A stretch of 64,000 bases of DNA from Verrucomicrobiales bacterium (GTDB taxonomy: Bacteria > Verrucomicrobiota > Verrucomicrobiia > Verrucomicrobiales > DEV007): contig JARGNI010000001.1 in NCBI GenBank assembly GCA_029213195.1, positions 186,001 through 250,000 on the forward strand. The letters are read 5' to 3'. This document shows, one piece after another, positions 1 through 36,128 of this stretch. Every line of letters starts with the position of its first letter. Position 1 is the stretch's first letter. The notes under the pieces were generated by a model. It ran no database searches and was not told where the DNA came from. It saw only the letters and a program-made list of their open reading frames with translations. The position numbers and the translations under genes were made by a program.

Positions 1-3000
1 ACGGAGGTGGAAACCTGATCATCACCGATATCAACGGGGGAACATCCGATGACGAACTTTTCATCGAGGAGGTCGATGTCGCGGGAGTTGCCTACTACCA
101 GGTTCGCGATCTTGGCGGATTGCCGCTGACAACGAGTGAGAACGCTGCCGACTTCATTCGGGTCGACGCGAATACGATTCAGATTCGGAAAAGCATCGTG
201 ACTGGCGGGTTGACCGTGAATACCCTCGGGGAGACCACCAGCGATGCGGTGACCCTTGGGGGAACTGTGCCCTTTTCGTTTGCAGGACCTGTGGTGGTCA
301 ATGGAGAGTCGATTACCCTGTTCCAGGATGTGACCGCCGACGCTGCGGGAACTCCGCAGGACGTTACTTTGAATGGTGCGGTGACTCTCAGCACTGCTGT
401 TGCGGTTACGGGAGCGGATGTCGTCTTTGAATCCACGGTCGACTTCTCTACCTTCGACCTCACTGTAGACACGACGGGTGCCAACAGTGAGATCAAGGGA
501 GCGATCGCCGGATCCGGTGTTCTCATCAAGCAAGGCCTCGGAACGCTCCGCATGAGTGGAGGTTCCGCGAACAGCACAGGGGCAACCACGGTCGAGGCCG
601 GTGTTCTGGAATGGGGTGCCAATGATGCGCTTGGCAGTGGCACGGTCACGGTCGAGGCCGGTGCCACCGTGGATGTCTCGTCTCTTAGCGGAAGTAACAA
701 TGGCGCTACCGGCACCAATGGCAGCCAGCGAGACTACGTCCTCGCCGGAACCGGATCAGCTGGGCAAGGTGCTCTCATCAACTCGACGGGATCCCTCGGC
801 GGGAACTCCGCAGTGCGCAGTCTCACTCTTACCGACAACACCACGATCACGACAGGTGCTCGTCTCGATGTAGGCTCCGGAGGAACGATTGACTTGGCTG
901 GTTTCACCCTGACGAAAGAGGGAGCCAATGTCCTGCCGTTCCGTGCCGCAGTGAACGATGCATCGGCCAGCCTGGTCATCAACGCGGGTGGAGTCTACAC
1001 CGAGAATTTCGATCTCACTCTCGACACAGTGGCCCTGAAAGACGGGACTAGCTTCGGAATCTACTCCTACAACGGAACTCCAGGTCAGACCGTGACAGCC
1101 GATATCACGATCGATGGAAACGCCAGACTTCGACATGGTTCCAATAATGGAGCTGGAGGCGCTGGGACGGGTGTTCCGTCTTCCGCGAACAAGTGGGAAG
1201 GAACTCTCACGATCAATGGGGGAACGGCGACTCTTCAGAATGCAGGGTTCAACGCCAACACTTCGAATGTCGAGTTTAACAGTGTCATCTCCGGAACGGG
1301 AACGATTGTGCTTGATGGGAACCGGGCAGATCGCTCGATCACCTTCGGCAGCGCGAATGATTTCTCCGGAACCGTCCAGCAGATCGATCAAGGCACCTTC
1401 ACTCTTGCCAACGGTCTTGCGCTTCAAGATGCGACCCTGGATACTCGGACCACGGCAGTGGGAGACTTGGATTTCGGATCGCTGACTGCGGCTACCTTTG
1501 GAGCGTTGACAGGATCAAATGATCTTGTCCTCGAGAATGGAACCTCTTCTGCGGTGGCTCTCTCGGTGGGGAACAATGATGCCAACTCCACCTATTCCGG
1601 AGAGCTCTCCGGAACTGGTTCCCTTGAGAAGATTGGCACAGGCACTCTTACTTTCGAGAATGATCAGACCTTTACCGGTACGACTACCATCACCGACGGA
1701 ACACTTGCGCTCAGCAAGGGGGCGGGAACGAGTGAAAACGTGCTCGCTGGTTCTTCCGCGATCACCGTGACTACCGGTGCGACGCTGGATGTAACTGCGC
1801 AGGAAAATGGCGTGATCTCCCTGGCCAACGGTCAGATTCTTCGAGGCGAAGGAACTGTAGTTGGAACGATTGATGGGGAGAATGGATCTGTTCTCTCACC
1901 AGGTGAAGGAGGGGTCGGCGATCCAGGGATTCTTTCTACGGGCAATCTCGATTTCATCTCCGGGGCTTCGGTCATTATCGACCTCGGAGGAACGACGGCA
2001 GGAACGGAGCACGATCAGATCAATGTGACAGGATTGGTCGAAATTGGCGGTGCAACTCTGGACCTCCGTCTCAGTGATACTCCTGCGGTTGGTGATTCCT
2101 ATCAGATCATCAAGAATGACGACACGGATGCGACCGAACTCTTCGCTGCGTTCCCTGAGGGTCACGTGTTTGATCTAACCTCGACGGCGGATGGCAAGAA
2201 CTACACGTTCTCCATCACCTATGCTGGCGATACTGGAAACGATGTCGTCATCACCAGTGCCGGGCTTGCCGAGACGAGTGTCACTCTTGATGGCTCGAAC
2301 AATCTCGTCATTACCGATATCGAAAGCGATAGCTCCGACGACCTCACGATCGTCGATGACGGTGCGGGGAACTATTTGATCTCGGATGCCAACCTCGCGC
2401 TGACTACCAACATTGCCGGAGCAGTCCGTGTCGATGCGAAAACGATTCGAGTGCCGAAGGCGGGAGTGGCAGGCTTGATCGTCACGACTGCCAATGGTGC
2501 GGATACCGGGACCGATACGGTCACTTTCGCCGGAGCCGCCCCAGTTGATTTCGCCGGAGCCGTTCAGGTGAATGCGGAAGCCATCGTGCTGTCGCAAGAT
2601 ATCGATGCAGCAGGTCAGGATGTAACTTTCAATGGGGCCGTGACAGTGGGTGATGATGTATCTGTGATAGGATCCGATATCCTTTTCCAGGACACCACAG
2701 ATCTGGGCACCAACGAATTGACAGTCAATACTACAGGGACGACTTCCGAGTTTCAAGGGGTGGTCAGTGGTGCCGGCTCAGTGGTCAAAGATGGAACGGG
2801 CGAGTTGATTCTCTCTCAGGAGAACCTCTTCAGTGGAGGGCTGACCATCAACGATGGCATCCTGCGGGCTGAAGATAACCTGGGGAGCGGAACCACGACC
2901 GCCATGGGAACGGGTTCTGTAACTCTCACCGGAGGTGAGTTGGAACTGGCTTCCAATCTTTCGAATACGCTTTTTGACAACGACACGACGGTGAGTGGAG

Positions 3001-6000
3001 ATGCTACGATCAAGGTCAGTCGCAATGGGGGCACGGGAACAGGCATGGTTCTTGACCTGAAGAGTCTCACTGTTGGTGCGCAGACCCTTGTAGTAATTCC
3101 CGGCGATGGATTCACCGGGGGAACCGCGAATCTCGATGCAAACGGAGGCACTCTCACGGGTGATGCGACCTTCCAGGTCATCAATCAGTTCTCTGGAAAC
3201 GCGGCTAACGCTCTACTCCGATTCCGCGGTCTCGAAGGAGCCTTCGGTTTCACAAAGATTGGAAGTGGAATCGTGGACCTTACGGGGTCCGGTATCTCGG
3301 GAGTTACGGCTCCGTATACCTACAACAACGCAACCGTCAATGGGGGGCAGCTCCGAGCCTCTGCGACGGATGTGCTTCAAGGAACGACAACCGTCGAATC
3401 CGGAAGTATCGATCTTCGGAACAACCTGAACGGAGCTCGTGTTTCCGACTTGGTATTCAATGAGAACGGAGCGTTGTTCCTGACTCGAAATGACGCGGGG
3501 ACCTTCGACATCAAGTCGATCGATGTTGCAGATGGCAAGCAGCTGACTTTCCAGTCCAGAACCTCAAATGGCGCGGTGAACGATCTCACTCACACCGCCA
3601 ACGTGACGGGTGGAATTACGACGGGGGGCAATTCGATTCTACGAGTGACCGACAACAATTCTTCCTTTGATACGCGAGTCCAGGGAATAATCACCATGGG
3701 TGGAGACCTGACTCTGAATACAGGTGATTCCCAGGTCACTGCGACTTTCAATCGTCCGATCGATGATGGGGCGAACGACTTCAATGTCACGCAGACAGGA
3801 ACAGGAAGAATCGTTCTGGATGCGGCAAACACGTTCAGTGGGACGACTACGGTGAATAACGGCCGTATGGTTCTTGCTGCGGCGAATGCCCTCGGTGGAA
3901 CGACTGCGATCAACGTGAACACCAACGGTGATCTCGATGTCGAGGACCAGGGTGGAAGCAGCACAATCAATGACTCTGCGGTCCTGACAGTCAATGGCAG
4001 TGCCATCGTCTCTTTCGATCAGAACGAGACCATGGGAGGACTTGCAGGAGATGGAATGCTTCGAGCCCAGGACCTGGGCAGTGGCGTGGCTCCCGTGACT
4101 CTCACCGTAGGTGGTGGAGACGTTTCGAGTTCCTTCGCTGGAGATTTGCTCGACGGCGATCAGGCTCTAGCCTTGGCCAAGGTAGGGGATGGAACGTTCA
4201 CGATCACAGGCAATGCCAACATCTACTCTGGTGGTACGACGATCAGTGGTGGGATTTTCGAGGCCAACAACACAGGCGGCTCTGCGACAGGAAGCGGCGG
4301 GGTGACCGTGAACTCGGGGGGAACTCTCTCCGGGACTGGATCTATCAGTGGTGCAGTCGCTGCGGCGGGTGGAACCATCAATCCTGGAGTGACTACTGGA
4401 GATCTCGCGACTGGAAACCTTTCCCTCGATGCCGCAAGCACCCTGGCCATCGAATTGGGAGGAACCGGAACCGGCGACGGAGCGGGAACTTATGACCAGC
4501 TCGTGGTAACCGGGGCCGTGGATCTGAACGATGGAGCCGCCGGAGCAGGCGCGAAGCTGGACATCACTTACACCGGCGGGTTCACTCCTACGGCAGGGCA
4601 GAAATTCACCATCGTTGTGAATGACGACGATGGAGATACCGTCACCGATATTCTGCGCGTCGATGATGAGGCTCTGGGCACGATCGACCTCACCGAAGGA
4701 AAAGTATTCACGGTGAACGGAGATGTTTTCAGCATCAGCTATGTTGCTGGTGGGGGCGGCGCCAACGATGTCGAACTGACCTTCCTCGGAGCCGCCGAAA
4801 CGAACGTCACTCTCGATGGGGCAACGCTGGTTATCGAAGACATCAATGGAGCAGACTCTGATGATGATCTGACCATCAGTGACGATGGCACCCATTACAT
4901 CATCACCGATTCAAGTCTGACTCTTACGACCGATATCGGAACCGCCACGCGGGTCAATGCAACGACGATCCGGGTAGCAAAAGGGGATGTCACTGGCGGC
5001 ATTCGCGTCGACTCACTCGACGGAAACGACACCATTACGATTGGCGATCTCAGCGGGCTCACCGGGAACTTCACCGTGAATGGTGGCGATGGTGCGACCG
5101 ACCGTGTAGTTGTGGCAGGAATTGCGAATGCGGGAGCAAATGATTTCCTCATCGGAAACGGAGACGACATTGAGTCGATCGAATTTACCACGGGACGTCT
5201 CGTGACTTCTGGAACGGTTCAGCTTGTGACGAGTGGCTCCGTGACCGGCGGTGCCGGGGCAGGGGTGGATATTTCGGCCACGAACCTGCAGATCGATGCG
5301 GATGGTGGGATCGGATCCGTGGGCACTCCGCTGCAGACCGCTGTGGCGAATCTGGAAGCCCAGGCAGGTGTCGCGGGAGTATTCGTTGCCAATGCCGGAG
5401 ATCTCACGATTGGAGGTCTTACTGCCCTCGACGGGATTCAGACTCCTGGTGATGTCGTGATTTCCAGTGCCACGGGCAGTATCCTGGATGGCGGCGACAC
5501 AAGCGCTGACCTTACTGCCAACAGGGTTGCCTTGATTGCTCAACAGGGTTCAATCGGAGCCTCGGGAGATGCGATCTCGGTATCGGCGACAGAGATCGCC
5601 ACGGACACCTCGACCAGTAATGGAGCCCAATTCCTTACTGCGGTTGGAAATATCGCGATCAACGGGATTGATGCCGGAAATGGAACGGTGACGCTGGAAG
5701 GCGGCGAGTTTGATATTCCGACTGGCGGTGTGGTTGCCGACGACACCCTGATCGCTGTGGCGAACGGAGCCGTCCTCGACGTGGATGCGGTGGAGACTCT
5801 TGCTGGGGTTTCCGTTCTCAATGGGGGAATTCTCAAGGGAGATGGTGACGTCGATGCCGATGTGGTCGTCGAGAGTGGGGGCGAGTTGACCCCGGGAGAT
5901 GGTTCGGTTGTGACTCTCGATACGGAGGATCTGACCTTGGAAAGTGGCAGTGAGATCACGATCGAAGTCGATGCTGCCGGCGTGTCGGATGTAGTCTCCG

Positions 6001-27000: not shown

Positions 27001-30000
27001 ATTTCCTCTGGGAGAGTGGCAATGAGAATCACGCGATTCCTTATGCCGAGGTCTATATCCGGGTTCTCAACGATGAGCCCGTCGCTTTGCAAAACGCTAC
27101 GGCAGTTCGTTCGCAGAACACTTTCGATGCATCGGAGATGCTCGATGGAAATACCGCACAGGATTCGGGATGGGCGAACAGTGCACTCGGCGAGAATACC
27201 GCGGTCTTTGAAACGGTCACCGATCTGAATCCGAATGGAGTGCCGACGGAACTGACCTTCACGATGCAGTCCGGTGGATTTACCAACCACGTGCTCGGTA
27301 AATTCCGGATCTCCGTGACCACCGACGACCGTTCCACGTTTGCCGATGGCTTGCAGAATGGTGGCGATGTGGATGCGAACTGGATCGAGCTGACTCCGGA
27401 TTCGATCACTACGGATGGCCAGGCGACCTTTACGATCAATGGCGACAATTCAATCCTGGCGTCCGGACCGGTCAACAACTTCGAGACCTTCACGATCAAG
27501 GCGACAACGAGCCTGACGAATATCACCGGCTTCCGCCTCGAGGCGCTCGAGGATCCGAGTTTCTCCAATAACGGGCCAGGAATGTCCGCGAATGGAAACT
27601 TCGTTGTTCAGGAATTCGGGGTCAGTGCACCTCGGACCCTGACTCGTGGGTTGCTCGAGAATGATTTCGATGTCGACGACGGGGACACCATCCAGTTGGC
27701 AAGTGCTGACACGACCAGTGCTCTAGGCGCATCGGTCACCGTGAATGCTGACGGTAGCTTCAGCTACGATCCAACCAATGCGGCGAATCTCCAGGATCTC
27801 GACGAGGGGCAGTCTGTGATCGATACCTTTACCTACACCATCACGGATGCGACGACTCCGCCAGATGGATTGTTGAACGTCCAACTCGTGAATACGGGAG
27901 GACCAAATCCGGGAACCTCGACTGACAACTGGAAAGCTCTCTTTGATGCTCTGGATATTGCGGGAGCAGGAACCACCGGCACCGTCGCGGGATACAATGT
28001 CCTGAATAATGTGACGGACACCGAAACGGTCTTTGACTACGCCGGAAACGGCGAGGACTTTGGCGTGAACAATACGATTGGTTCAATCGCTGGGGATGGC
28101 CCCGGTGGCGGTCCCGGTCCGTTTGATCCTGCCGGAGCAGCAGGAGTGAACTACGCGATTCGGACCACGACCTTCATGCGTTTCGAAAACGCCGGAACCT
28201 ACACCATCGCGATGGGAAGTGACGATGGTCGTCGGATCGAGTTGACCGATAGGACGACTGGGGGCAGCTCTGCTTTCACCGGTTTCGAGACACGGGCAGG
28301 TCAGGTCAATGGAGCGTTTGCGGCCGGGGACAACGTGATCGGATATACTGGAGGCACGGCTCATCGCTGGACTTATGGAACCTTTACGGTGGCTGCGGGA
28401 GATGTGCTCGCGCTCGACGCCTTCTACTATGAAGGTGGCGGAGGTGACTCCGGTGAAATCGTGATCGCTAATGGGACTCCTCCCAACAGCCAGACCGATC
28501 CGTCCGCGGAGTATTCTCTCCTGCAGAATGGCGTTCTTGGAATCGGACTGGAGTCTACGGATCCATCGAGATTCGACGTAACCACGAGTACGGCGACGGT
28601 TTCCATCCTTGTGACCGGTGCCAACGATCAGATCGATGCGGTCAACGATCTCTACGAGATCAATGAGGACGATGTTCTCACCGGTCAGAACGTGACCTCG
28701 AACGACACGGATCCGGATAGCAATCCACCGGTCGTTCCGGGAGTGAATCCAGGTGGTGACGACGATGATCCGAAGAACATCATCGCGGTCGACGGAAACG
28801 CCGCCGGAGTTGGGGCGCCGGTCACTCTCGCGAGTGGAGCGGTCGTCACGATGAACGCGGATGGCACCTTCACCTACAATCCGAGTGGGGCCTTTGACTA
28901 CCTCTCCACGGGAGAGCGTACCACAGACTCATTCACTTATACCGTCAACGATGATCGTGGCGACGGAACGGCGGTAACGCAGGACACGGCGACCGTGACC
29001 ATCGAGATCACCGGCCAGAATGACGGCAATACGGCTGTTGATGATGGCGGCTATGAGGTCTCGGAGGATGGTGTGCTCACGGTGAGCGATCCTGCGAACG
29101 GTCTTCTCAACAACGATTCGGACACGGATGCGAGTGACGCGATCTTTGTGCAGAGCATCGATACCAGCGCCACCCAGGGAACCGTTACTTTTGATACGAC
29201 TAGTGGAAAGAACGGTGGTCTTCTCGGATCCTTCTTCGATCTGAACAACGGTTTTGGCGAAGGAGAAGACATCGGTCTGCCCTCGGCTCGGACGTGGGTG
29301 CTCGAGCAGGTTCAGGCAGACGAGTTTGTCGTGATGCAGGCGCTTCAGCGTCTCGGTCTGACTTCGGCGGCGACGGTGATCACACCACGAATCGATTTTG
29401 GTGTCGGAACGGACGTGACCCAGGGTGACGGCTCAGTCCTCGATCGAGGCGGATACAATAGCGGTAGCGTTCCTCCCTGGCAGGGGCTTTTCAACGATGT
29501 CGGGGAAACCGCGGACATGGATGGCGACCAGATTGCCGCGGTCTTCAGCGGGCAGCTCGAAATCACCACTGCGGGAACCTACGACTTCACGACACGGAGT
29601 GACGATGGCAGCGTGGTCTTCATCAATGGGGAACCCGTAACCACTCTCAACCGCGATGGCGGGATGGTGAACCGAACCGGATCCGTCACCTTGGATGCGG
29701 GAATGCACGATATCTGGGTCGGCTTCTTCGAAGGAGCTGGTGGAGCAGGCGTCCAGGTTTCCTACTCTGGAGCCGACACCGGAAACACCCGGGTGATCAT
29801 TCCACCTGCGGTTCTCTACAACGACGTCGCCACGCCGGGAACCTTTGTTTCCGGGGGACTGAAAGGTGAGTTTTACGACCTGAACAACGGTGCCAACAAT
29901 GACATCGCAGGCAGTGGAAGCCCGTATCTCCTTTACGAGATCCCGGACGACGCAAACATTCTCCTCGAAGCGCTGCCTTCTCAGGCTCCTGATACGGACA

Positions 30001-32108
30001 TCTTCACTCGCTGGATCGACTTCGGAGCCGGAACCGAAGAGGCAACCGGCATGGGAACCACTCTTGCACGTGGAGGATCGCTCGGGAACACCTTCGGAGG
30101 ACTGCTCCAGACAGAGCCGGGTGCCCAGGTCGATAACGACCAGGTGGCTGCCCTCTTCCGAGGATACATCAACGTGCCGGCCGATGGAGACTACACCTTC
30201 ACCGGGCGCGCCGACGACGGCTTCACCATCGTGGTGGACGGCGACGTGGTTGCCAGCCGAATCGGGTTTGGCGGCATGGCCGATATCTCGGGTGCTCCCG
30301 TGACCCTGACGGCAGGCCTGCATGAGATCGTGATCGGCCACTTCGAAGGCGGCGGTGGCGCTGGACTCCAGGTCAGTTGGGAAGGTCCCGGCACGAACGG
30401 TCGCGAGATCCTCGGGCCCCAGGTTCTCTCCAGTGTGAACACGGGAGTGGGCGATGGCACCTTCACCTATGATCCGAATGGCCAGTTCGACTACCTGGCA
30501 GCAGGGGAGTCGGCAACGGACACATTCACCTACACCATTTCTGACAAGGATGGTGAGACCAGCACTGCTACGGTGACGGTAACGATCAATGGGGAAAGCG
30601 ATGCACCGGTCTTCTTTGTCGACGGAACCGATACCGATTCGATCGAGGAAGGCGTCACGGAGGCCGACGGAACGCTCACAACGGGTGGAAAAGTCAGCCT
30701 GACGGATGCGGATACGAGCGAGACGGTTTCCGTGGAAGTCACTGGGGTGACCGCCGCAGGAGAGGTTGCCGGATTGCCATACACGAATGCGCAACTCCAG
30801 GCGATGCTTTCGATCAGTCCAGCCAACCCTGCCAATGCCATCGGCGCTGGCGTCAACGACGCAGACATCGATTGGACCTTCAACAGCAATGGAGAGACCT
30901 TCGACTACCTGGCCGCGGGGGAAACGGTCGACATTGTCTTCACCCTTACGGCGACGGACAGTGGCGGAAACTCGGGCACGCAGACAATCACGGTTCGAGT
31001 CACGGGAACCAATGACGCTCCAGAACTCACTGCTGACACCTCCACCGCCTATGAGGGTGGATCCGGCGGCCCGGCGAACCCTGCGGGCAATGTTCTCATC
31101 AACGATACGGATAAGGACTTCACCGATGCTCCGGTCGTCTCCGAGATCAGATACGGTGGAACGGACTACGACGGAAACGTCAATCCGACCGGCCAGCCAA
31201 CGACAGGCAATCCTGCTCAGATCAAGGGGGCCTACGGTGACCTCGTGATCGATGAGAACGGCAACTTCATCTACTCCGTGAACAATGGACTGGCTGATGT
31301 CCAGGCGCTTCGTGCGGGGGATACCCTCACGGAGGTCTTCACCTATGAAGTGAATGATGGAAACGGAGGCGTGGTCACGGAAACGATCGAGGTGACGATC
31401 CAGGGTGCCGATGGAGCATCGATCAACGGAGTTTTCCTGACTGGTGGCTCTCGCATCCTCGAAGGCTTCCGCTTTGCCGAGTCTGCTGGATTTGATCAGC
31501 GTGATGAGGAAGGAAACTCCACGGGAACTCCAATCCTGACCTTGATCCCGAGTTACTCGGGATCGGCTTCGCCTGGATCCGTGATTACGATCAGCGTGCT
31601 GGGCCGGAATGGGGAACTCCTCTCGGGAGGTCAGCTCACGGTGGTGGCGGATATCGCGGGTAACTGGATCGCGAACTTCAATACCTTGATTCTGGGTGAC
31701 TCTCCATATGTGGTTCAGATCTACACCCAGGCTCCAGCCTTCCTGTCATCGACGCCTGGAGTGTTCGAGACGTTCTATGCGCCTTCGATCAATCCGACAT
31801 TCAGTGAGTCCGAGGGTCTCTCGGTGAACTCGATCTTCGGTCGACGGCTTTCTGGAGTCGGGATGAAGGAGCTCAACGAAGCCAACCGGAATCCCGGCGG
31901 AAACTCGGGGGCGCGCCTGCTCAACTCAAGCCATCTGCCTGCGGATCTGCAGAACATGATCCCGCCAGGTGTGGATGAGAATGGTGGGTCCGGTCAAGGA
32001 AACGACGACGAAGCCGAGGAAGAGGAGAAGCCGGAAGAGAATTCCCAGGGCAATCCCAACGGCGGGAATCCCAACGCTCAGCCCGGAGAACCTGGCGGGA
32101 ACCAGTAG
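1..32108 (+). CDS. Giant modular surface/secreted protein (PATR plus VCBS/cadherin-like repeats), 5' truncated
   Basis: One uninterrupted frame is open from base 3 to the TAG at 32106-32108, giving at least 10,701 residues. The first in-frame TTG (120) is not the start, because upstream codons read GGGNLIITDINGG, a module that recurs seven more times. From about 0.5 to 24.2 kb there are some 16 autotransporter-associated beta-strand repeats (pattern G.GTLTL...NTYTG.TTV..GTL), eight closing modules (ELGG..YDQL..G..DLG.ATLD) and eight openers (GNLVITDI). From 24.2 to 31.4 kb it is VCBS/cadherin-like (NDAP...DG.FTYDP....FTYT..D), interrupted by PA14-like and other inserts. I noticed only two cysteines. 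The C terminus is an acidic Gly/Pro/Asn-rich tail. Known families of this kind are extracellular and often adhesive; an adhesin, surface fibre or matrix role here is inference. The secretion route is unknown because the N terminus is missing and no C-terminal beta-barrel is visible. Neighbouring guaB is unrelated. Confidence 0.93.
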   Translation, partial: GGGNLIITDINGGTSDDELFIEEVDVAGVAYYQVRDLGGLPLTTSENAADFIRVDANTIQIRKSIVTGGLTVNTLGETTSDAVTLGGTVPFSFAGPVVVNGESITLFQDVTADAAGTPQDVTLNGAVTLSTAVAVTGADVVFESTVDFSTFDLTVDTTGANSEIKGAIAGSGVLIKQGLGTLRMSGGSANSTGATTVEAGVLEWGANDALGSGTVTVEAGATVDVSSLSGSNNGATGTNGSQRDYVLAGTGSAGQGALINSTGSLGGNSAVRSLTLTDNTTITTGARLDVGSGGTIDLAGFTLTKEGANVLPFRAAVNDASASLVINAGGVYTENFDLTLDTVALKDGTSFGIYSYNGTPGQTVTADITIDGNARLRHGSNNGAGGAGTGVPSSANKWEGTLTINGGTATLQNAGFNANTSNVEFNSVISGTGTIVLDGNRADRSITFGSANDFSGTVQQIDQGTFTLANGLALQDATLDTRTTAVGDLDFGSLTAATFGALTGSNDLVLENGTSSAVALSVGNNDANSTYSGELSGTGSLEKIGTGTLTFENDQTFTGTTTITDGTLALSKGAGTSENVLAGSSAITVTTGATLDVTAQENGVISLANGQILRGEGTVVGTIDGENGSVLSPGEGGVGDPGILSTGNLDFISGASVIIDLGGTTAGTEHDQINVTGLVEIGGATLDLRLSDTPAVGDSYQIIKNDDTDATELFAAFPEGHVFDLTSTADGKNYTFSITYAGDTGNDVVITSAGLAETSVTLDGSNNLVITDIESDSSDDLTIVDDGAGNYLISDANLALTTNIAGAVRVDAKTIRVPKAGVAGLIVTTANGADTGTDTVTFAGAAPVDFAGAVQVNAEAIVLSQDIDAAGQDVTFNGAVTVGDDVSVIGSDILFQDTTDLGTNELTVNTTGTTSEFQGVVSGAGSVVKDGTGELILSQENLFSGGLTINDGILRAEDNLGSGTTTAMGTGSVTLTGGELELASNLSNTLFDNDTTVSGDATIKVSRNGGTGTGMVLDLKSLTVGAQTLVVIPGDGFTGGTANLDANGGTLTGDATFQVINQFSGNAANALLRFRGLEGAFGFTKIGSGIVDLTGSGISGVTAPYTYNNATVNGGQLRASATDVLQGTTTVESGSIDLRNNLNGARVSDLVFNENGALFLTRNDAGTFDIKSIDVADGKQLTFQSRTSNGAVNDLTHTANVTGGITTGGNSILRVTDNNSSFDTRVQGIITMGGDLTLNTGDSQVTATFNRPIDDGANDFNVTQTGTGRIVLDAANTFSGTTTVNNGRMVLAAANALGGTTAINVNTNGDLDVEDQGGSSTINDSAVLTVNGSAIVSFDQNETMGGLAGDGMLRAQDLGSGVAPVTLTVGGGDVSSSFAGDLLDGDQALALAKVGDGTFTITGNANIYSGGTTISGGIFEANNTGGSATGSGGVTVNSGGTLSGTGSISGAVAAAGGTINPGVTTGDLATGNLSLDAASTLAIELGGTGTGDGAGTYDQLVVTGAVDLNDGAAGAGAKLDITYTGGFTPTAGQKFTIVVNDDDGDTVTDILRVDDEALGTIDLTEGKVFTVNGDVFSISYVAGGGGANDVELTFLGAAETNVTLDGATLVIEDINGADSDDDLTISDDGTHYIITDSSLTLTTDIGTATRVNATTIRVAKGDVTGGIRVDSLDGNDTITIGDLSGLTGNFTVNGGDGATDRVVVAGIANAGANDFLIGNGDDIESIEFTTGRLVTSGTVQLVTSGSVTGGAGAGVDISATNLQIDADGGIGSVGTPLQTAVANLEAQAGVAGVFVANAGDLTIGGLTALDGIQTPGDVVISSATGSILDGGDTSADLTANRVALIAQQGSIGASGDAISVSATEIATDTSTSNGAQFLTAVGNIAINGIDAGNGTVTLEGGEFDIPTGGVVADDTLIAVANGAVLDVDAVETLAGVSVLNGGILKGDGDVDADVVVESGGELTPGDGSVVTLDTEDLTLESGSEITIEVDAAGVSDVVSVNGALDLTGATLTLIADVGLSVATAPQTITIIENDGSDLISGEFNGLTSGDPVSLNGIVYSIFYGFGGSNDVVLRQPDTSVGRDINGNLVITDTAGGDSDDDLTIREDVVAGVPVYVVSDPNLTLGRDPNLLGATTELGTGNIIVPKSSVTGLIVDTITGNDRVTLESADGNLDFDGPITVNADTISLDAGLLASGGSNITLNGAVDMTSGDRTLIGNEIRLESTLDVGANRITIASTGDSEIVGDMTGAGNAIAGGLLKQGPGELTISGDGSAFTGASLLQGGSLIVNGSVGGDVRATNNSVVGGEGTIFGDVILSGAGDINPGDSGNGKGTLTVSDTSDLDTEVRFTANSTFTVDLTGAAGVGTEVAGTHYDQLRVLTPVFTSTVDLAGATLELNVDPSDLDKGDTFTILDLASGTVSGTFAGLADDTSFIDAATNQSFTINYNGGDGNDVVLTANGTVETLVSFDGAGNLVVEDISSETADNLQISQNFSRIIIKDVTPGTAVVLGTSIAGATMPDPNTVIIDLLDPDIQSQFTGNTIVVKTENAGGDPSADDTLTVDYTTGFISKIIDLDGGGEDTAGDQLIIANGNFVDVTHNMTGAGSGSLDFGPVTQDVTYSGLELQPVDLSTSSTEDVTLNLPNGVTNEAELVELGGGLAELRSTSSPATFLNTRIQIPPAGQTLAIIGGSGTDTVTVSSGAGLVLNGHLEVTAENIELAGDVNTGNSGNQTYNGEVTVSGTTTLSGQDVLLNGNVVLQDDLSVSVSNTGLGGEASGDISSDIGVDRTFTKLGTGEFTLSGTNSFPGSVVVDEGTLTVEDSAAIANTVAVTLNSPGTLKVSARERIGSLSGDGQLNLVNFLETGDANDTTFSGRIFGSGGLVKLGSGTFTLTGDTNTYTGDTDVNEGTLLVNNLNQSGTGSGDVTVSAGATLGGTGAIEGDVQVNAGGILDPGETTGDLEIDGTVTFVNGSTFAVQLGGTSGTLGAVPNDGAGTYDQIVTGDDVDLGNATLDASMVAGYLPAKNDNFVIVENGTGNTTSGTFTGLPDGALFRLENGDPGGFAFYTIHYNVNANSISSDPTDPSAWTAGNDVVLHSLGEADTLIEILGGDLIITDVNSDSADEITVSYDGGTNEYVITDPNLFLTTTLTAGQFDQPDLNTIRVDADLVTGGVTVQTANGDISPDIVTIDSLRGALGGGLSVTAETIRLNTSVDTGGADQTFDGAVTLLDDVTLDGRDVSFISTIDGSQALQVNASRATDFSGAIGATTELTSLTTDTQGTTLIGGNVSTTGDQSFGNAITLNQDAVFSGENLTFDTTVDGAQALTANSANGGVTTFGDTFGGTTALLSVTTNADGTLEIGANVSTSGNQSYGEAITLTDDVILGSTSGVITFEDTVATDGTDRDLTVAGVSVINGGSVTTGATGDQTFSGAVTLGADTTLSGEDISLNAPVAMGANDLTVEVTGATGQSTGAISGSGQLIKQGVGTFTLNGSGGNNTYNGLTHVMAGELVVGGSFGGDGAIRGDVEIDNGATFRFTQSNIVNNGSDFTINGTLDMGGVTDVIGNFAGTGNIVNNTNGTGIILDDLNAVHTFSGDILGNGGLFIRSNISASGTLELSGGTVSLTNFRVGDGTVTITDDATVNVVGETVVASNRGDIPGITNRTVTATLNIESGSLTTRGIEAGNWVGNTVNGLIRQTGGTVTTTGDAGEGNGVRLGHWPGSSIVYELVDGTLDIQNGFDLSTATDGTGRFTQTGGVLNVDGVDVNSRGGGGGNGTFELLGGTLNLGDKGITNDSSDNVATVNLGGTGAMIVATAASSSTSNFNLVGVGADALIVDSNGFDLDFDGVLSGIGGLEKVGAGSLTLTAANTYTGSTMVTAGELIVEGSLEATLVTDYRDNFQGPNPATGWQYLWNAPADWTGTSSLDGSTGGLGNPVTLSEIDNFEPLVWNGSRYTADGDTNNGNGTPANFLQLTPTGGHPGRGSGQAVGIGNAEDRYAIAAFTVSEDGEYAIGNSVLDPQGAAGNGNDLRVFVVSGGSVRDLLTIDTDNAITSFDVALGELTAGDVIYVATGPKTSDGSDGFAWDFSIEKVSNVTVAAGATLAGDGSIAGAVDSAGTVEPGLLGGGDTTDDLAVGDVTLAATATVGIELGGNTPGTDYDQLDVSGLVDLGDATLDVSMAAPFAPANGDVFVILENDGSDAITGTFAGLPEGQVFLADGNIFQISYTYDAATGTEGSGNDIAIVSGGAVETEVSIDPAGNLVITDIGGGDTDDFLRVEADEANGRYVITDTTRTKAITLSPGVDGATAGFTAVDGAVSIDPFTVWVPFTSSSLTGTSQVILNTLSGADSVTLANLDGFAHAVDYRAGDDGGAPAGDTLTIDTGAASVAGDVTVTHTGSEAGTIDLSTSSGDVTFSDLDAAIDMTASTVDSLVFNLPAGAGGGQLTDLGGGNLRLSSTTGTGFQSVDFEAPTGVDAAITVNGADNDLTVTSNFQLEFDLTLNGGEISFGNNILDINGNTLTVSAGVDSVWSNQIESSAGGGEIVVEAGAGSVEINGATNSLDDTVNLQVNAGAELIVDAGSADLADFTANGGKLTLEPGATATPDLNAVMADLALWLDATDLDADGVADAALAEGSTVSSWQNKAELVTDLSLAAGFGDFDNVQGTPSYVTSAATTALTTGLPVIDFDAATLDSLWMNEEMRNQLTGDYTIMSVARYTDTSGNGRVISDRTGHNWLYGFHNNGTGRWYANGWIQNSGPNNAAWHQHTGTMDGGFADPQADFWRDGVQLTDNGTGSNNSSANYEPRQIQLGGWQTNREFSDAQVAELIVFDRVLSEPERLLVESYLNEKWFGAAPTVAVGDFSENEVTVTEDSNLHLGDGLAGAEIGALTIAEDTTLSVTATIPGAEASFASTTLDGAAGTTGTVEVQDTTNVFLNDLTGAADLATTGDGCVHLVTDNTGFTGALTIGGTSSVVAGNTNALGSGPAATTVESGGALVLEANNIAENVTLNGVGNAKFSAALYDNSSSTIDFLGTIDVASDARIRGGSGGEFDLNGAITIQPGADLEFDTDNRVDLDTTITGDNTTSITITGGGDRLDIHQSQPNFSGTVRVESTGRLDVHAANGMGSGDVIVTGNDAGVILRGNDRTWTNNFFIQGDGRGTEGAIRFEGGNDHQVTGLVTLSGNADIFVNNSTATLTQGLAGPFTLTKTGANTTSRLILEQDSADLAGFNLEHGQVRLETERGLGNTTTVSIDTDQAIEFDFGAIGPVTYSNNPTGLNTFNVTNGTIEVLSGEVTLDAGFTLNQTVYGDVILGGDGTLNVETSFGNGNPSFATGLDHYGYHINNDGLALNLDGNGGMMGGGDPKLFNNFYGVDLLTDGPGNRGLDFNNDNDFINSGAIGQIDNYSNLWVGYFTPDASGTWTFRNAGDDDRAGIWVDLDQDGVFESSTPGLGSNRGEQLSWEDGGTKTVNLTAGESYLVAFTHREGGGGSRADFRINYTGGGVSTVTGEQIVKPTNPSQAGMWSPYSLGTAQNDVIKIGDGTTTFAAANTYNGETKVQDGTLVVASDAALGTVDGGTMVSPGASLLFDGGISYTTPEAITVASNLGGGTVGNLSGTNSFDGTIELSRSAEPVSGSFTGGDVGEGDLDLTGNIVYAVNARGPAATVQGVTFTDEASERGVGITARSNILNWQNPNFGATADDDALELIMQSIRHGGLNPGIVTVDFKNLTPGQSYKAQLLSLENNANRNTSIYFDDQLLESDFTAGGRGANVGAVFTYEFVATNPTHSFILDGSTSTVGSDHNPVLQAVTLEETAGFVGEPGTAFLNLVSGELTLNGNVDMGVSGVEVVGDGDSIVNGDVSGTGAGSTITKNGDGVVTLSGDNTHEGLTEVKDGTVIATTDTALGTGDAGTTVSDGATLGLTGGITISDEAITLNGNGAGEGALVNLSGDNTIAASSPITAELVSLGQVGIGSSSGTLTIDSDIDLQLSKLNTYGDGDITVNGVVGTSVSGPVFATVRDQILGEAGLTGFDPLAFYEFNEGTGNEVLNSAGDEGGGSFNSANYTTGRTAAPGDTSLNFDNGNDDVTIDVSSGLFDAIGTNNQVTLSLWVNGDPASNPRTNTTVGGYSGGDRIIFTHLTWSDRRVYWDSGTGGVNGASRVSYLTTNDNQFEGQWNNWTFVKDGVNDFSGIYRNGQLVQSSNASTADLAGLTSLFIGQDYRGQIDDVAIMASALDADQVNDIYLAGTDALQLEQDNNLMKFGSGTLTLNNTNTYTGPTTVMEGTLDVDGSIGTTAASGDTVTVEAGATLTGSGLVEAPIVVENDGVGGFGTVQPDGDMTLGDGSTDAFVSNGKLAVDAGLTVILDDPDTALLGEFNIIDGTLDIAGDTVEVQDGGNLSGVGTINADVVLGNASLSPGSLAPTPIDGQFTGYLPVGAQPSVLAFPGAELADLVGANGELSGGFVNPDNAAAEAYFLEVDGAMATFQLQIFQGGHTKVAKIQLEETASGIEVRQLWARFRLNGDFRGADFETTFDGNPTPGSSSYGVTQLTLNFDLDCEATSADEIGRLNIVGDLTLSTPGVFDVDLNDNAIPGTGYDQVAVTGEVDIAGATLDVSLNDSPAVGERYVLIDNDGTTDAVVGEFAGLPDGSLVDFLSTADGNTYTFEIQYDVEADGVTPGNNVVLVNLGVAETGVTLDGSGNLVITDISGGNTNDQLEITVDATGYTITDADPNLLIAVDVPGAVRISTNEVFIPFAAIAGGELQINTLAGTDMVTLDLGPAGAANLQQKVILAGGDDADELIVNGTFASVTHDLTDGASGSFNLDGDADAEIEYRELEDPIDMTGSTLTDFVFNLPAGADSVQLSDQGAFLRLESTAGTPTFRTTDFVAPSGSVSINGGTGDTVEVSTPLTLGFDLSITADTVTIPNTLDIADKSLTLDVSQDGSVISGAVNSNGGGLTKNGAGSLDVTGQVTATNFTATLNDGVVDVSNGANTFDAASKFFVNNAGTELIGYTSGSLGDAELNLDGGQLTWAAGNEFFFEGLTETVYQGQNISDQSGLTVLQAPTLRNSIRAGESNFGAGTVDGGASGPWAYVGNNETIKYEGQFFDADGIFAFGENIDDQVLIKIDGVEVLRNTAWNVPTTTSSGSNNTASATGQLDFGMGPNGDGWHDVEFIFGGGGGGNGAVGQNGWASNFGFGLNDNPGTGFNSNQGGDYAPAVEPLDGTPTLFRSINPSNTTITNNVNILSDSEIEVGTIVVSVESTGTLTIAEGVSLTVDSFDGEQDLGFASTVIQGAAGTTSTVTTSGMADVILRDVSGAADFDVTGDGTVYLPTDNSAGYSGEIHVQNGSTLEISSNGALGDVSNGTIIDDGASLRVTGGINYSLVEDLTIGGGGSPKSDGALQSLGDNTFAGSIALGGDATVRNSSGTLNLTGGVDTSGTNELVFESVGNTNIRTVGISGDGSVRKEDDGVLTLELDSSYTGLTTINNGIVDIRTDLGLGTADAGTTVSGDGTLRLRGNITVSDSFVLNDGNGEGGQGVIWNDADANTITGSVTINGTPRIDVDGGTTLTFDGVVDGAGNLSLNDTGELALNNTNTYTGTTTVEDAGTLTVGADGALGTGGGGVATGTTLSDGATLNFDLPGDYTGVEDLVLGEGVSVNNLQGDTDLASANITLLGNVTINSSVASTTFGTGAAIDVGNFLITVTGDGDTDLRGDISSSASFISETYGTFVPGLSEVVYDQQNLNNPSGNILSDTIQSSPRAGEFGTNQGPWGFDGTTETIVYKGQFFDADGIFSFAENIDDEVLVRIDGQEVLRNSNWNIATTTAIDDGINNGALSAGVNTSADGPVVDFGMGANGDGWHDIEIRFTNGNGGEGGINRDGYSPARGFLLANPASGDPNDLPGVVNGALGDGGADVGIRGSNAAWETATDPGDGSLFRTAARAGIVKLGTGTLSLDGNNTYPGLTDIREGTLQIGADGESETIATPGGLEVDPAATLEISIDAANAVDLVDVTGSVTLGGNLSLVADAANTIAEGTTVTIIRNDGTDPVNSTFAGLAEGDTITSNGHTFSISYQGGDGNDVVLTALNDAPIANPDTNVITETGGADTGETATTTGNVMGGAGAHLGATTADVADTDSDPDDNPASNPHDGSVVVSRVSYTGIDPAFQNVNQGGAVSGPTLVDGRFGTLTINPDGTYTYALNDAAVDSLDTGDVEFDEFTYTIVDGPLDPAAWDFTGTGATNDLQDWTVLSGFGYTGTANGSDGLAAGTSGGGHSYDDSGDVNPPFLGASPDVIFDPSLAAGDIAFSVDFAGGDGDQSGTGTAPNPNRGQIYDTPNEVINAFGGSTQNTGQKGLAIYDVETGEYVTTFFRDGNSSATQTITATRGELEAAGVDFDSGTYQLHFFDNDSGGWGWTKLRQVSISGTKTAEPSSSATLTITVNGTNDDPIANDDANFAVENSGDRNGTVTVGGDGVTGGGTTGNVIGALGGGAVGTNPGDQADIDVDANDQLYVVSVTFDGQTYTVPSGGSVDIETRFGTLTMNSTGEYTYLLDDAETDPLNEGDIEIESFGYTIVDADLSLGTTVSALTGTGDLDLSGSFKYAVNVGNDAHTPTIGDAVFTADSATPGVTVNADNVVTDWGPGRANFDGDGNPLTGAESDLERLLRSIRWENTGAVDTPNTLQVTLDDLTAGSIYKLQLLIADSSGGSRDFDILQDGVTIVDNFESRTGDATQARLVTYTFTASSTSTVFEFNGATGAPGGDQNPILNAFTLEELDAEPSSGALTITVNGKNDNPTANDDVGYSVSEDNVLNNPATAINLGNLTTLGTGIHSITADGQTFDAYVDNDTNEGWLLIGRGREGWQFDTDGQGNIADVSQGLGTTDGFAPAAYSDAIINDLLAQSGLTMDDVEIRIKRAADTTGTEYQEVRWTDFTGNGDAFTFNIEDSQYGVTQTTLNAPAGLPGAEIESVAGRNTRDSFNNGTIGNDADRIFTWAWGGHANQAGFAYGSAVANGSNDPSNFLWESGNENHAIPYAEVYIRVLNDEPVALQNATAVRSQNTFDASEMLDGNTAQDSGWANSALGENTAVFETVTDLNPNGVPTELTFTMQSGGFTNHVLGKFRISVTTDDRSTFADGLQNGGDVDANWIELTPDSITTDGQATFTINGDNSILASGPVNNFETFTIKATTSLTNITGFRLEALEDPSFSNNGPGMSANGNFVVQEFGVSAPRTLTRGLLENDFDVDDGDTIQLASADTTSALGASVTVNADGSFSYDPTNAANLQDLDEGQSVIDTFTYTITDATTPPDGLLNVQLVNTGGPNPGTSTDNWKALFDALDIAGAGTTGTVAGYNVLNNVTDTETVFDYAGNGEDFGVNNTIGSIAGDGPGGGPGPFDPAGAAGVNYAIRTTTFMRFENAGTYTIAMGSDDGRRIELTDRTTGGSSAFTGFETRAGQVNGAFAAGDNVIGYTGGTAHRWTYGTFTVAAGDVLALDAFYYEGGGGDSGEIVIANGTPPNSQTDPSAEYSLLQNGVLGIGLESTDPSRFDVTTSTATVSILVTGANDQIDAVNDLYEINEDDVLTGQNVTSNDTDPDSNPPVVPGVNPGGDDDDPKNIIAVDGNAAGVGAPVTLASGAVVTMNADGTFTYNPSGAFDYLSTGERTTDSFTYTVNDDRGDGTAVTQDTATVTIEITGQNDGNTAVDDGGYEVSEDGVLTVSDPANGLLNNDSDTDASDAIFVQSIDTSATQGTVTFDTTSGKNGGLLGSFFDLNNGFGEGEDIGLPSARTWVLEQVQADEFVVMQALQRLGLTSAATVITPRIDFGVGTDVTQGDGSVLDRGGYNSGSVPPWQGLFNDVGETADMDGDQIAAVFSGQLEITTAGTYDFTTRSDDGSVVFINGEPVTTLNRDGGMVNRTGSVTLDAGMHDIWVGFFEGAGGAGVQVSYSGADTGNTRVIIPPAVLYNDVATPGTFVSGGLKGEFYDLNNGANNDIAGSGSPYLLYEIPDDANILLEALPSQAPDTDIFTRWIDFGAGTEEATGMGTTLARGGSLGNTFGGLLQTEPGAQVDNDQVAALFRGYINVPADGDYTFTGRADDGFTIVVDGDVVASRIGFGGMADISGAPVTLTAGLHEIVIGHFEGGGGAGLQVSWEGPGTNGREILGPQVLSSVNTGVGDGTFTYDPNGQFDYLAAGESATDTFTYTISDKDGETSTATVTVTINGESDAPVFFVDGTDTDSIEEGVTEADGTLTTGGKVSLTDADTSETVSVEVTGVTAAGEVAGLPYTNAQLQAMLSISPANPANAIGAGVNDADIDWTFNSNGETFDYLAAGETVDIVFTLTATDSGGNSGTQTITVRVTGTNDAPELTADTSTAYEGGSGGPANPAGNVLINDTDKDFTDAPVVSEIRYGGTDYDGNVNPTGQPTTGNPAQIKGAYGDLVIDENGNFIYSVNNGLADVQALRAGDTLTEVFTYEVNDGNGGVVTETIEVTIQGADGASINGVFLTGGSRILEGFRFAESAGFDQRDEEGNSTGTPILTLIPSYSGSASPGSVITISVLGRNGELLSGGQLTVVADIAGNWIANFNTLILGDSPYVVQIYTQAPAFLSSTPGVFETFYAPSINPTFSESEGLSVNSIFGRRLSGVGMKELNEANRNPGGNSGARLLNSSHLPADLQNMIPPGVDENGGSGQGNDDEAEEEEKPEENSQGNPNGGNPNAQPGEPGGNQ
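11661..12260 (+). other. Unrecognised domain inserted within a PATR segment of the giant protein
   Basis: About 200 residues starting TDYRDNFQGPNP and ending FSIEKVSN. They lie between GELIVEGSL and VTVAAGATLAGDG, two halves that are contiguous in other PATR segments of this protein (for example near 10500-10565). It contains Trp-rich and GNDLRVFVVSGG-like strands and resembles a beta-sandwich. The family was not recognised; insertion is inferred from the split flanks. Confidence 0.5.
13807..14529 (+). other. LamG/concanavalin-like domain (copy 1) in the giant protein
   Basis: The segment begins with LALWLDATDLD, contains SSWQNKA, a YTIMSVARY strand and GRVISDRTGHNW, and ends VAELIVFDRVLSEPERLLVE followed by SYLNEKW. 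That order (ALWLDA, W.N, ..V.LI.FDR.LS..ER..VE.YL..KW) is the usual signature of concanavalin A-like lectin/glucanase domains in large Planctomycetes and Verrucomicrobia proteins. Carbohydrate binding is inference. Confidence 0.65.
15960..16550 (+). other. PA14-like domain in the giant protein
   Basis: The segment contains LWVGYFTPDASGTWTFR, then AGDDDRAGIWVDLDQDG and YLVAFTHREGGG..ADFRI. These match the G.YTF...SDD...++.D and HREGGG order of PA14-type beta-barrels. It lies between two PATR signatures (about 15590 and 16571). PA14 domains often bind glycans; no specificity can be read. Confidence 0.6.
16893..17409 (+). other. Inserted domain, pair II copy 1
   Basis: Starts GDLDLTGNIVYAVNARG and ends NPVLQAVTLEE. 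The middle reads LTPGQSYKAQLLSLE and FTYEFVATNPTHSFILDGST. The same order recurs at 25720-26280 (GDLDLSGSFKYAVNVG, LTAGSIYKLQLLIADS, QNPILNAFTLEE), so this is a mobile module within the protein. The family was not recognised. Confidence 0.55.
18051..18710 (+). other. LamG-like domain (copy 2) in the giant protein
   Basis: Begins FDPLAFYEFNEGTGNEVLNS and continues with LNFDNGNDDVTID, VTLSLWVNGD, WNNWTFVKDG, YRNGQLVQS and GQIDDVAIMASALDADQVN. This is the classic LamG/laminin-G strand order (YEF.EG.G, V...SG, SLWV, W...Y/F.KDG, YVNG, G.IDDV.I...AL....I). Confidence is high for the fold; the ligand is unknown. Confidence 0.75.
21079..21650 (+). other. Inserted domain, pair I copy 1
   Basis: Runs from GLTETVYQGQNISDQ through FFDADGIFAFGENIDDQVLI, KIDGVEVLRNT, FGMGPNGDGWHDVEFIFG and ends near PTLFRS. 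It is paralogous to 23149-23785, sharing the FDADGIF-F-ENIDD core and the GMG-NGDGWHD motif. The layout (DDQVL.KIDG...NT.W) resembles PA14-like carbohydrate-binding folds, but the family is not certain. Confidence 0.55.
23149..23785 (+). other. Inserted domain, pair I copy 2
   Basis: Paralogue of 21079-21650: PGLSEVVYDQQNLNNPSG, FFDADGIFSFAENIDDEVLV, RIDGQEVLRNSNWN, FGMGANGDGWHDIEIRF. It is followed directly by the last recognisable PATR signature (KLGTGTLSLDGNNTYPG). Presence of the same core twice within 2.1 kb suggests internal duplication. Confidence 0.55.
25720..26280 (+). other. Inserted domain, pair II copy 2
   Basis: Paralogue of the module at 16893-17409, here inside a VCBS repeat. 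It follows FGYTIVDADL and is followed by AEPSSGALTITVNGKNDNP, the normal last strand and linker. The core includes GDLDLSGSFKYAVNVG, ANFDGDGNPLTGAESDLERL and LTAGSIYKLQLLIADSSGG. The family was not recognised. Confidence 0.55.
26394..27645 (+). other. Two inserted domains (fibrinogen-like? and discoidin-like) in a VCBS repeat
   Basis: The first part (about 26394-27069) has DNDTNEGWLLIGRGREGWQF and ends WESGNENHAIPYAEVYIR, faintly like bacterial fibrinogen C-terminal-type domains. The second (about 27076-27645) begins ATAVRSQNTFDASEMLDGNT and has LGKFRISVTTD, which fits an F5/8-type-C (discoidin)-like domain. They separate SVSEDNVLN from GLLENDFDVDD, the two halves of a cadherin-like repeat. 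Names are tentative. Confidence 0.4.
27866..28586 (+). other. PA14-like insert in a VCBS repeat
   Basis: Contains TTTFMRFENAGTYTIAMGSD followed by DGRRIELTD and, later, LALDAFYYEGGGGDSGEIV. This matches the PA14 strand order (G.YTF...SDDG..+.ID ... HYE.GG). It splits a VCBS module between TYTITDA and TATVSILVTGANDQ. Confidence 0.55.
29214..29823 (+). other. PA14 domain (tandem copy 1)
   Basis: Begins GLLGSFFDLNNG and contains VFSGQLEITTAGTYDFTTRS followed by DDGSVVFINGEPV, then GMHDIWVGFFEGAGGAGVQV. This is a textbook PA14 pattern (F.G.l.ip..G.YtF...SDDGs.lyidG...v...G.h.i.i.yfe..g.a...l.w). It is paralogous to the next domain at 29860-30430. Confidence 0.75.
29860..30430 (+). other. PA14 domain (tandem copy 2)
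   Basis: Begins GLKGEFYDLNNG, then LFRGYINVPADGDYTFTGRA, DDGFTIVVDGDVV and GLHEIVIGHFEGGGGAGLQV. Both tandem copies open with G-L-x-G-x-F-x-D-L-N-N-G. Together they sit in a VCBS repeat split between TVTFDTTSGKN and GDGTFTYDPNGQFDYLAAG. Confidence 0.75.
31420..32105 (+). other. C-terminal segment and acidic tail of the giant protein
   Basis: The last 229 or so residues include an Ig-like stretch (ITISVLGRNGELLSGGQLTV), a segment ending FETFYAPSINPTFSESEGLS, and then a hydrophilic tail (DDEAEEEEKPEENSQ, then GNPNGGNPNAQPGEPGG). No transmembrane helix, beta-barrel, LPXTG, PEP-CTERM or recognised type I or type IX sorting signal is visible. Confidence 0.6.
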
Positions 32109-35281: not shown

Positions 35282-35595
35282 GAGGGACATCGTCCCCGAT
35301 GTCCAAGGGTGGAAGGGAATACGTGGTGCCCAGGCCGAGGCAGCGGACCACGAGGACGTGGTCCCTCCGGCGGGAAAGGGAGGGACACCGTCCCTGATGT
35401 CCGAGGGTGGAAGGGAATACGTGGTGCCCAGACCGAGGCAGCGAACCACGAGGACGTGGTCCCTCCGGCAGAAAGGGAGGGACATCGTCCCCGATGTCCA
35501 AGGGTGGAAGGGAATACGTGGTGCCCAGGCCGAGGCAGCGGACCACGAGGACGTGGTCCCTCCGCAGAAAGGGAGGGACATCGTCCCCGATGTCC
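35281..35595 (+). repeat. REPIN-like tandem array, left side of the RAYT gene
   Basis: Three full units (35281-35368, 35379-35466, 35476-35563) and one left half-unit (35572-35595), with period 97-98. Each unit is an outer inverted repeat GGAGGGAC...GTCCCTCC enclosing two hairpins: GGACATCG-TCCC-CGATGTCC, and GGACCACG-AGGA-CGTGGTCC, which has a matching tetraloop layout. About 40 nt separate the two hairpins. This is REP-doublet (REPIN) structure. The array starts within the guaA stop codon and ends 4 nt before the RAYT stop. Confidence 0.85.
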
Positions 35596-35598
35596 GGA

Positions 35599-36081
35599 TT
35601 ATCGATACCAATTCAGAAAATAGACTTCTCCTTGAAGCGGCCAATCGCCAGCGTTCTCAATGAGACCGTGACGAACGGGATTGTTCCTGACGTAGGCGAC
35701 TTTTTCCGCATAGGAGTCAGAACTGCGCAGCAACCGGTCCCAGGCATGACGTTGCCACAAAGGATTGTCAGCGGTATGCCCAAGAGAGCGACTCACGATC
35801 CGCTTCCAGTAGCGAATCCATTGACGAACCGAGGACGGATTTGAAACACCGGGGGAGGCGAAGAAATGCAAGTGGTCGGGGAGAATCGTGTAGTAACCAG
35901 GTCTCCAATCGGTCGCCTTTTCCCATGAATCGAGGAGAGCTTGGTGAAATGACTCGTTGGCAAAGAGGTGTTTCCGCTGAAATGCGCAAACGGTAACGAA
36001 AACGATCTGTGGCTGACCCGTTTCTGGGCTTCGGTTCAGGACGTAGGGGCTCTTTCGACTCGGAAGAGAAAAAGTGCTCAT
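35599..36081 (-). CDS. REP-associated tyrosine transposase (RAYT, IS200-like Y1 family)
   Basis: 160 residues from the ATG at 36081. A longer reading of the frame to 36369 would add 96 residues encoded by the REPIN array, so it is rejected. The fold is a Y1 HUH transposase: HxH motif HLH at about residues 70-72 (LPDHLHFFASPG), catalytic Tyr about 130 (EKVAYVRNNPVRHGLI), and the family ending W-P-x-x-G-E. RAYTs nick and join single-stranded REP hairpins and are normally domesticated single-copy genes flanked by their REPs. This copy is flanked on both sides by such repeats. It lies alone between guaA and secDF. The gene looks intact. Confidence 0.85.
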   Translation of the reverse strand: MSTFSLPSRKSPYVLNRSPETGQPQIVFVTVCAFQRKHLFANESFHQALLDSWEKATDWRPGYYTILPDHLHFFASPGVSNPSSVRQWIRYWKRIVSRSLGHTADNPLWQRHAWDRLLRSSDSYAEKVAYVRNNPVRHGLIENAGDWPLQGEVYFLNWYR

Positions 36082-36128
36082 GTGAACATATTTTCGGTTT
36101 TGCGGAGCAGAAAAACAAGTCAAAAAGT

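What the first reader, a model, noticed from the sequence alone, without database searches (positions are those of the whole stretch)
1..32108. A single frame of more than 10,700 residues that starts before the window
Half the window is one uninterrupted gene. The codons before the first possible start (TTG at 120) read as a module that recurs seven more times, so the real protein is larger still. A protein of well over 1 MDa is rare, and its biosynthetic cost implies a structural or surface role.
Basis: seen in the sequence. Interest (0 to 1): 0.7.

Follow-up and report, generated by a model that had tools for sequence, protein, structure and literature searches.

The report
Tandem giant protease-headed surface protein genes
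The open frame is the last two thirds of a real 16,800-residue bacterial protein, one of two neighbouring relatives (the other has 18,539 residues) that share a metalloprotease-like head and a common tail around a very long, variable, repeat-built middle; giant bacterial proteins are known, but this protease-headed, tandemly duplicated family is little described.

Summary
Confirmed and extended. The frame 3-32108 is uninterrupted. Its start lies 18.3 kb upstream of the window (ATG at contig C57:167706), giving a complete 16,800-aa, 1.70-MDa, pI 4.05 protein ("B"). Directly upstream is a paralogue, "A" (C57:111564-167183, 18,539 aa, 1.88 MDa). They share an N-terminal (82% identity) and a C-terminal (75%) cap, both under purifying selection, around divergent β-helix, β-strand-repeat, cadherin-like, PA14 and LamG repeats. 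The N-cap holds a LEPR-XLL motif and an unannotated matrixin-like metzincin domain with intact HExxHxxGxxD and Met-turn. There is no Sec signal, membrane helix or recognised β-barrel. Cap relatives occur in 13 of 34 genomes of the same Verrucomicrobiales genus, up to 17 matches per genome, some in tandem arrays. One array adjoins a complete ABC/HlyD/TolC exporter; the window's genome has a type I exporter elsewhere. Best reading: type-I-secreted extracellular giant, adhesive or matrix-forming, with a protease head; activity, export and function are inferred. The size is not a record. Caveat: A and B share an identical 2,438-nt block (window 6585-9022), either gene conversion or an assembly artefact; reads were not available.

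The parts
1..32108 (+). In-window part (residues ~6100-16800) of giant protein B; the gene starts at ATG C57:167706, i.e. window -18294, outside the window
1..314 (+). Recurrent ~199-aa module, copy straddling the window start (residues 5969-6203)
1995..2585 (+). ~199-aa module copy (residues 6764-6960)
4476..5084 (+). ~199-aa module copy (residues 7591-7793)
5970..6557 (+). ~199-aa module copy (residues 8089-8284)
7101..7700 (+). ~199-aa module copy (residues 8466-8665), inside the identical block
8961..9608 (+). ~199-aa module copy (residues 9086-9301)
12444..13052 (+). ~199-aa module copy (residues 10247-10449)
19740..20294 (+). ~199-aa module copy (residues 12679-12863)
23958..24314 (+). 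~199-aa module, partial copy (residues 14085-14203)
6585..9022 (+). 2,438-nt block identical to paralogue A (C57:138219-140656), same frame; identity falls abruptly to ~50-67% on both sides
16194..16457 (+). GLEYA/PA14-like domain (GLEYA E 7e-5, PA14 E 0.002, both below the Pfam gathering score)
28593..28877 (+). Best of 7 Cadherin_4 repeats in the C-terminal cadherin/VCBS-like region
30111..30407 (+). PA14 domain (one of two in this stretch; E 1e-19 for the stretch)
31215..31424 (+). Best of 6 VCBS repeats
31389..32105 (+). Conserved C-terminal cap: GGSxILEGFRFAE motif, Ig-like core, GRRL motif, acidic Asn/Gly-rich tail; 75% identical in paralogue A and found in relatives

Best explanation
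The frame is a real gene for a 1.70-MDa exported protein, one of two tandem paralogues of a family found so far, within this order, only in one uncultured Verrucomicrobiales genus. Anatomy (shown): basic N-terminal helix; LEPR-XLL motif; metzincin (matrixin-like) domain with complete zinc-site residues; thousands of residues of right-handed beta-helix, beta-strand repeats, LamG, PA14 and cadherin/VCBS-like repeats; a conserved Ig-like C-cap with an acidic tail. Mechanism (inferred): the chain has no Sec signal, membrane helix or recognised beta-barrel and is threaded C-terminus first through a type I (ABC/HlyD/TolC) exporter. It folds outside into an acidic, very long stalk on or around the cell that binds glycans and surfaces. 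The metzincin head, which would emerge last, is an active zinc protease that acts on targets or neighbours or trims the giant itself. Tandem duplication plus exchange between copies keeps the two caps and varies the middle.
For: Complete gene and start; paralogue A; caps 82%/75% identical with dN/dS 0.06-0.10; LEPR-XLL over NCBI cut-off; repeats. Metzincin: H, E, H, G invariant in 42 relatives, third ligand Asp in 38 and His in 4, Met-turn in 40 of 42; profile hits karilysin 5e-6 and snapalysin 2e-4; AF2 model of a 58%-identical relative has pLDDT ~93-98 in the domain core and aligns to karilysin at Z 9.7, 2.6 A, 101 residues. Export: no signal peptide or TM; LssB-type T1SS ABC near a TolC in the own genome; in relative G030 a C39-type ABC and HlyD lie just downstream of two tandem LEPR giants, with a TolC between; N-cap and LssB-type ABC co-occur in the genus (8 both, 5 N-cap only, 5 LssB only, 16 neither; Fisher p 0.033).
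Against: No exporter gene adjoins A or B. The own LssB-type ABC is cut by a contig end and sits beside a different LapA-like adhesin. Four or five N-cap-positive congeners lack an LssB hit at 1e-100, and LssB-linked adhesins in three relatives have unrelated C-termini without LEPR. The own genome lacks the C39-type ABC at 1e-8. The metzincin is below the Pfam gathering score (16.2 vs 24). Few RTX motifs. The C-cap model is poor (pLDDT 53). No expression data; the co-occurrence test is not corrected for shared ancestry.
Confidence: 0.6

Rival explanations
1. A giant type V (autotransporter-like) or Sec-exported surface protein: the beta-helix and the passenger-associated (PATR) beta-strand repeats are a passenger that crosses the outer membrane through a barrel.
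For: PATR/TIGR02601 repeats and two beta-helix regions dominate; a basic N-terminal extension precedes the putative signal region.
Against: No hydrophobic core in the first 100 residues, no window of 19 residues above 1.6 anywhere; no barrel domain in Pfam scans; the C-terminus is a conserved cap with an Ig-like core and an acidic tail.
Confidence: 0.12
2. A substantial part of the size is an assembly artefact: the identical 2,438-nt blocks in A and B mark a repeat at which a short-read assembly was joined or duplicated wrongly.
For: Blocks exactly identical while synonymous sites elsewhere between A and B are near saturation; the genome is in 115 contigs with a 100-N gap elsewhere on this contig.
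Against: With two direct copies the linear order x-R-y-R-z is the only linear path through the graph; frames agree at all four junctions; no other exact repeat of 33 nt or more between the two genes; congener G025 has an independently assembled homologous frame of at least 10,241 aa, 68% identical to A over 2,935 aa; one gene's C-cap abuts the next N-cap in several other assemblies.
Confidence: 0.12
3. The metzincin domain is a decayed or structural remnant and the protein is purely a passive adhesin or matrix fibre.
For: No activity data; Peptidase_M10 score under the gathering threshold; some family members with LEPR lack a recognisable HExxHxxG in the stretch read (L096, L117, L127).
Against: Ligand and Met-turn positions kept in nearly all of 42 sequences from several phyla; dN/dS 0.06 in the domain between the paralogues.
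Confidence: 0.2

Closest known systems
LEPR-XLL domain giant proteins (NCBIfam NF012209, 'LEPR-8K')
   Same: N-terminal LEPRVLFSG motif over the cut-off, followed by a very long repeat protein
   Different: Here the motif is followed by a metzincin domain and the gene is one of a tandem pair with genus-restricted N- and C-caps; a full-text search for the motif name found only two papers with one mention each, not read
Matrixin-like bacterial metzincins (karilysin) and snapalysin
   Same: HExxHxxGxx(D/H), Met-turn, predicted fold (Z 9.7 to karilysin 4in9)
   Different: Third zinc ligand usually Asp as in snapalysin; almost no cysteine (A has 0, B 5 in the whole chain); fused to >16,000 residues; below the Pfam gathering score
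BapA/LapA-type large adhesins of type I secretion
   Same: Size, acidic pI, VCBS/cadherin-like repeats, no Sec signal; LssB-type exporter in the same genome
   Different: No RTX array, no linked exporter, NF045619 score 63.9 against cut-off 180, different caps
Giant proteins of Omnitrophota (39,678 aa in V. archaeovorus; PMC10066038) and Planctomycetes (PMC11573180)
   Same: Giant repeat-built proteins of PVC bacteria, some with LamG and cadherin-like domains

Membership tests
LEPR-XLL giants (NF012209) | LEPR-XLL motif near the N-terminus | tested here: met
   18.9 bits, cut-off 17, residues 47-62; conserved across relatives
LEPR-XLL giants (NF012209) | Very long repeat-containing protein | tested here: met
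   16,800 aa
Metzincin metallopeptidases | HExxHxxGxx(H/D) zinc site | tested here: met
   H/E/H/G in 42 of 42; D 38, H 4; B residues 205-215
Metzincin metallopeptidases | Met-turn | tested here: met
   M in 40 of 42
Metzincin metallopeptidases | Metzincin fold | tested here: met
   Model of relative L060 (58% identical), Z 9.7 to karilysin, 2.6 A, 101 residues; B's own N-cap lies outside the window and was not modelled
Pfam Peptidase_M10 (PF00413) | Score over the curated gathering score | tested here: not met
   16.2 bits against 24
Metzincin metallopeptidases | Proteolytic activity | not testable with these tools
   needs an assay
BapA/LapA-type T1SS adhesins | RTX repeats near the C-terminus | tested here: not met
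   only 4 GGxGxD motifs in 16,800 aa, no HemolysinCabind hit
BapA/LapA-type T1SS adhesins | NF045619 adhesin C-terminal family score | tested here: not met
   63.9 bits against 180
BapA/LapA-type T1SS adhesins | Linked T1SS exporter genes | tested here: not met
   absent around A/B; present on other contig C5 and next to relatives in G030
Autotransporters (type V) | Passenger beta-strand repeats (PATR) | tested here: met
   PATR/TIGR02601 in four of five stretches of B
Autotransporters (type V) | Sec signal peptide | tested here: not met
   best 19-mer hydropathy in the N-terminus 0.66
Autotransporters (type V) | C-terminal beta-barrel | tested here: inconclusive
   no barrel family in Pfam; C-cap model too poor to exclude by fold

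The most novel reading that the evidence does not exclude
The metzincin head is a built-in release or maturation protease: the conserved basic helix plus LEPR-XLL holds the last-secreted N-terminus in the exporter or envelope, and the adjacent metzincin cuts in cis or between neighbours to release or remodel the giant, doing in one chain what LapG does in trans for LapA; exchange between tandem copies shuffles the exposed middle. None of this was tested; it is compatible with the conserved order helix, LEPR-XLL, metzincin.
Probability: 0.1. Interest if true: 0.8.

Novelty: new variant of a known kind. Interest (0 to 1): 0.5.

Why it matters
Giant bacterial proteins are usually reported one at a time, with few annotated domains and unknown function. 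Here two adjacent giants, with relatives in 12 further genomes of the genus, give fixed caps around a variable middle, so conserved parts can be separated from freely evolving ones. An unannotated, apparently intact metzincin behind LEPR-XLL offers a concrete biochemical handle on a motif class that marks giant exoproteins, and the domain is also found in large proteins of planctomycetes and proteobacteria. If the identical block is real, the genes show how giants of this size can diversify, by tandem duplication and exchange.

Tried and rejected
Self-BLAST of the whole protein returned only the self match, so a module profile was built instead. C-cap structure: model too poor for a fold search, not searched. 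LEPR-XLL as a C39-peptidase leader: rejected as a general rule, since six N-cap-positive genomes including the own one have no C39 domain at 1e-8. LssB exporter as dedicated partner: not supported by the C-termini of the adhesins beside it in three relatives. Fusion of two smaller giants: no internal copy of either cap in A or B. TIGR01843 (HlyD) in the own genome: no hit over cut-off, possibly because the contig ends within the ABC gene. Literature search for LEPR-XLL found two papers with one mention each, not read. The 441-aa LapA-like ORF was noted, not pursued.

Full report
What was checked. The frame 3-32108 is open. The window is G000:C57:186001-250000 of a 5.91-Mb, 115-contig genome, 95% complete.

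A second giant. The region upstream is another open frame, A, C57:111564-167183, 18,539 aa, 1.88 MDa, no Cys. Only 522 nt separate A from B. Their first 243 residues are 82% identical and their last 238 residues 75% identical, with dN/dS of about 0.07 and 0.10 and near-saturated synonymous sites. The middles are mostly divergent. Neither cap occurs elsewhere in the genome or inside A or B. Together the pair occupies 106 kb.

An identical block. A 2,438-nt stretch is identical in A (138219-140656) and B (192585-195022, window 6585-9022), in the same frame; flanks drop to about 50-67% identity within 100 nt. This is what recent gene conversion would leave. A consensus copied into two places by an assembler would look the same, and I cannot separate these without reads. 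The linear order of the contig does not depend on it. Inference: recombination between the blocks would delete or duplicate a 54,366-nt unit and leave in-frame hybrids. In relative G006 two giants share an exact 247-nt stretch.

Domains. B: NF012209 LEPR-XLL at 47-62; two beta-helix regions, each followed by a choice-of-anchor Q domain; Big_9/cadherin-like domains; PA14; LamG_3; many PATR/TIGR02601 beta-strand repeats; a C-terminal series of Cadherin_4, VCBS and PA14. Pfam gives only a sub-threshold Peptidase_M10 hit (16.2 bits against 24) at the N-terminus. Other evidence supports it: across 42 relatives H, E, H and G are invariant, the third ligand is Asp (38) or His (4), and the Met-turn is kept in 40. 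The profile finds karilysin (5e-6), MMPs and snapalysin (2e-4). B's own N-cap lies outside the window, so I modelled a 58%-identical relative (L060): pLDDT is about 93-98 in the domain core, lower in loops, and it aligns to karilysin at Z 9.7, 2.6 A over 101 residues. The C-cap model is poor (mean pLDDT 53), with an Ig-like core at about 84.

Relatives. N-cap matches occur in 13 of 34 genomes of the genus (own included) and in none of 23 genomes from other genera of the family and order; up to 17 matches per genome, open frames to 10.3 kaa outside the own genome. C-cap matches occur in 10. Tandem arrays are seen in G006:C80, beside what read by eye as the same cysteine synthase and glycerate kinase genes as on the own contig, and in eight loci where one gene's C-cap precedes the next N-cap. 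Named records are uncultured Verrucomicrobiales MAGs; the metzincin domain alone also occurs in large proteins of planctomycetes and proteobacteria, sometimes near the C-terminus. G025, assembled independently, has a frame of at least 10,241 aa, 68% identical to A over 2,935 aa.

Export. There is no signal peptide, TM segment or C-terminal sorting anchor (one LPSTG string in the whole chain). Type I export is the most likely route. For: an LssB-type ABC near a TolC in the own genome, cut by a contig end; in G030 a C39-type ABC and HlyD follow two tandem LEPR giants on the same strand, with TolC in between on the other; co-occurrence of N-cap and LssB hit in the genus, 8 both, 5 N-cap only, 5 LssB only, 16 neither, one-sided Fisher p 0.033 (G001's weak ABC hit counted as absent, the partial hit of G018 as present; relatedness of genomes not corrected). 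Against: no linkage to A/B, no RTX array, and LssB-linked adhesins of three relatives have different C-termini.

Known context. Huge proteins are enriched in PVC bacteria (PMC11573180). Omnitrophota have a 39,678-aa giant with 42 TM helices (PMC10066038), and up to 85,800 aa is cited (PMC12057145). So size is not new. What I did not find described in the searches made is the paired-cap, metzincin-headed tandem family; the held library lacks most subscription papers and all preprints, so this is weak evidence of novelty.

Verdict. Observation confirmed; surface role plausible, not shown. New variant of a known kind.

Noticed in passing
window 35281-36408: Two arrays of ~97-nt units with palindromic ends flank an ORF (35599-36369, -) close to REP-associated tyrosine transposases (79.2 bits, cut-off 80): looks like a REP/RAYT unit.
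   Followed up: partly
window 60277-61812 (-); L177:1843-3420; L169:7734-9311: Tryptophan-halogenase-like genes in the window and directly beside giants in G025 and G006, there with a sulfatase.
   Followed up: partly
L146:6516-16011 (G000:C5): TolC, LapA-like adhesin fragment (441 aa), two TPR proteins and an LssB-type ABC that runs off the contig end.
   Followed up: partly
G000:C57:99896-100600: Tandem 167-nt repeat with exact matches up to 535 nt.
   Followed up: no
L086-L129: The same metzincin domain near the C-terminus of large proteins in several planctomycetes and other phyla, often without LEPR in the stretch read.
   Followed up: no
window 36416-39567 and 47532-50708: secDF, a YajC-like ORF (by eye) and secA lie downstream of the giant; ordinary housekeeping neighbours.
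   Followed up: no
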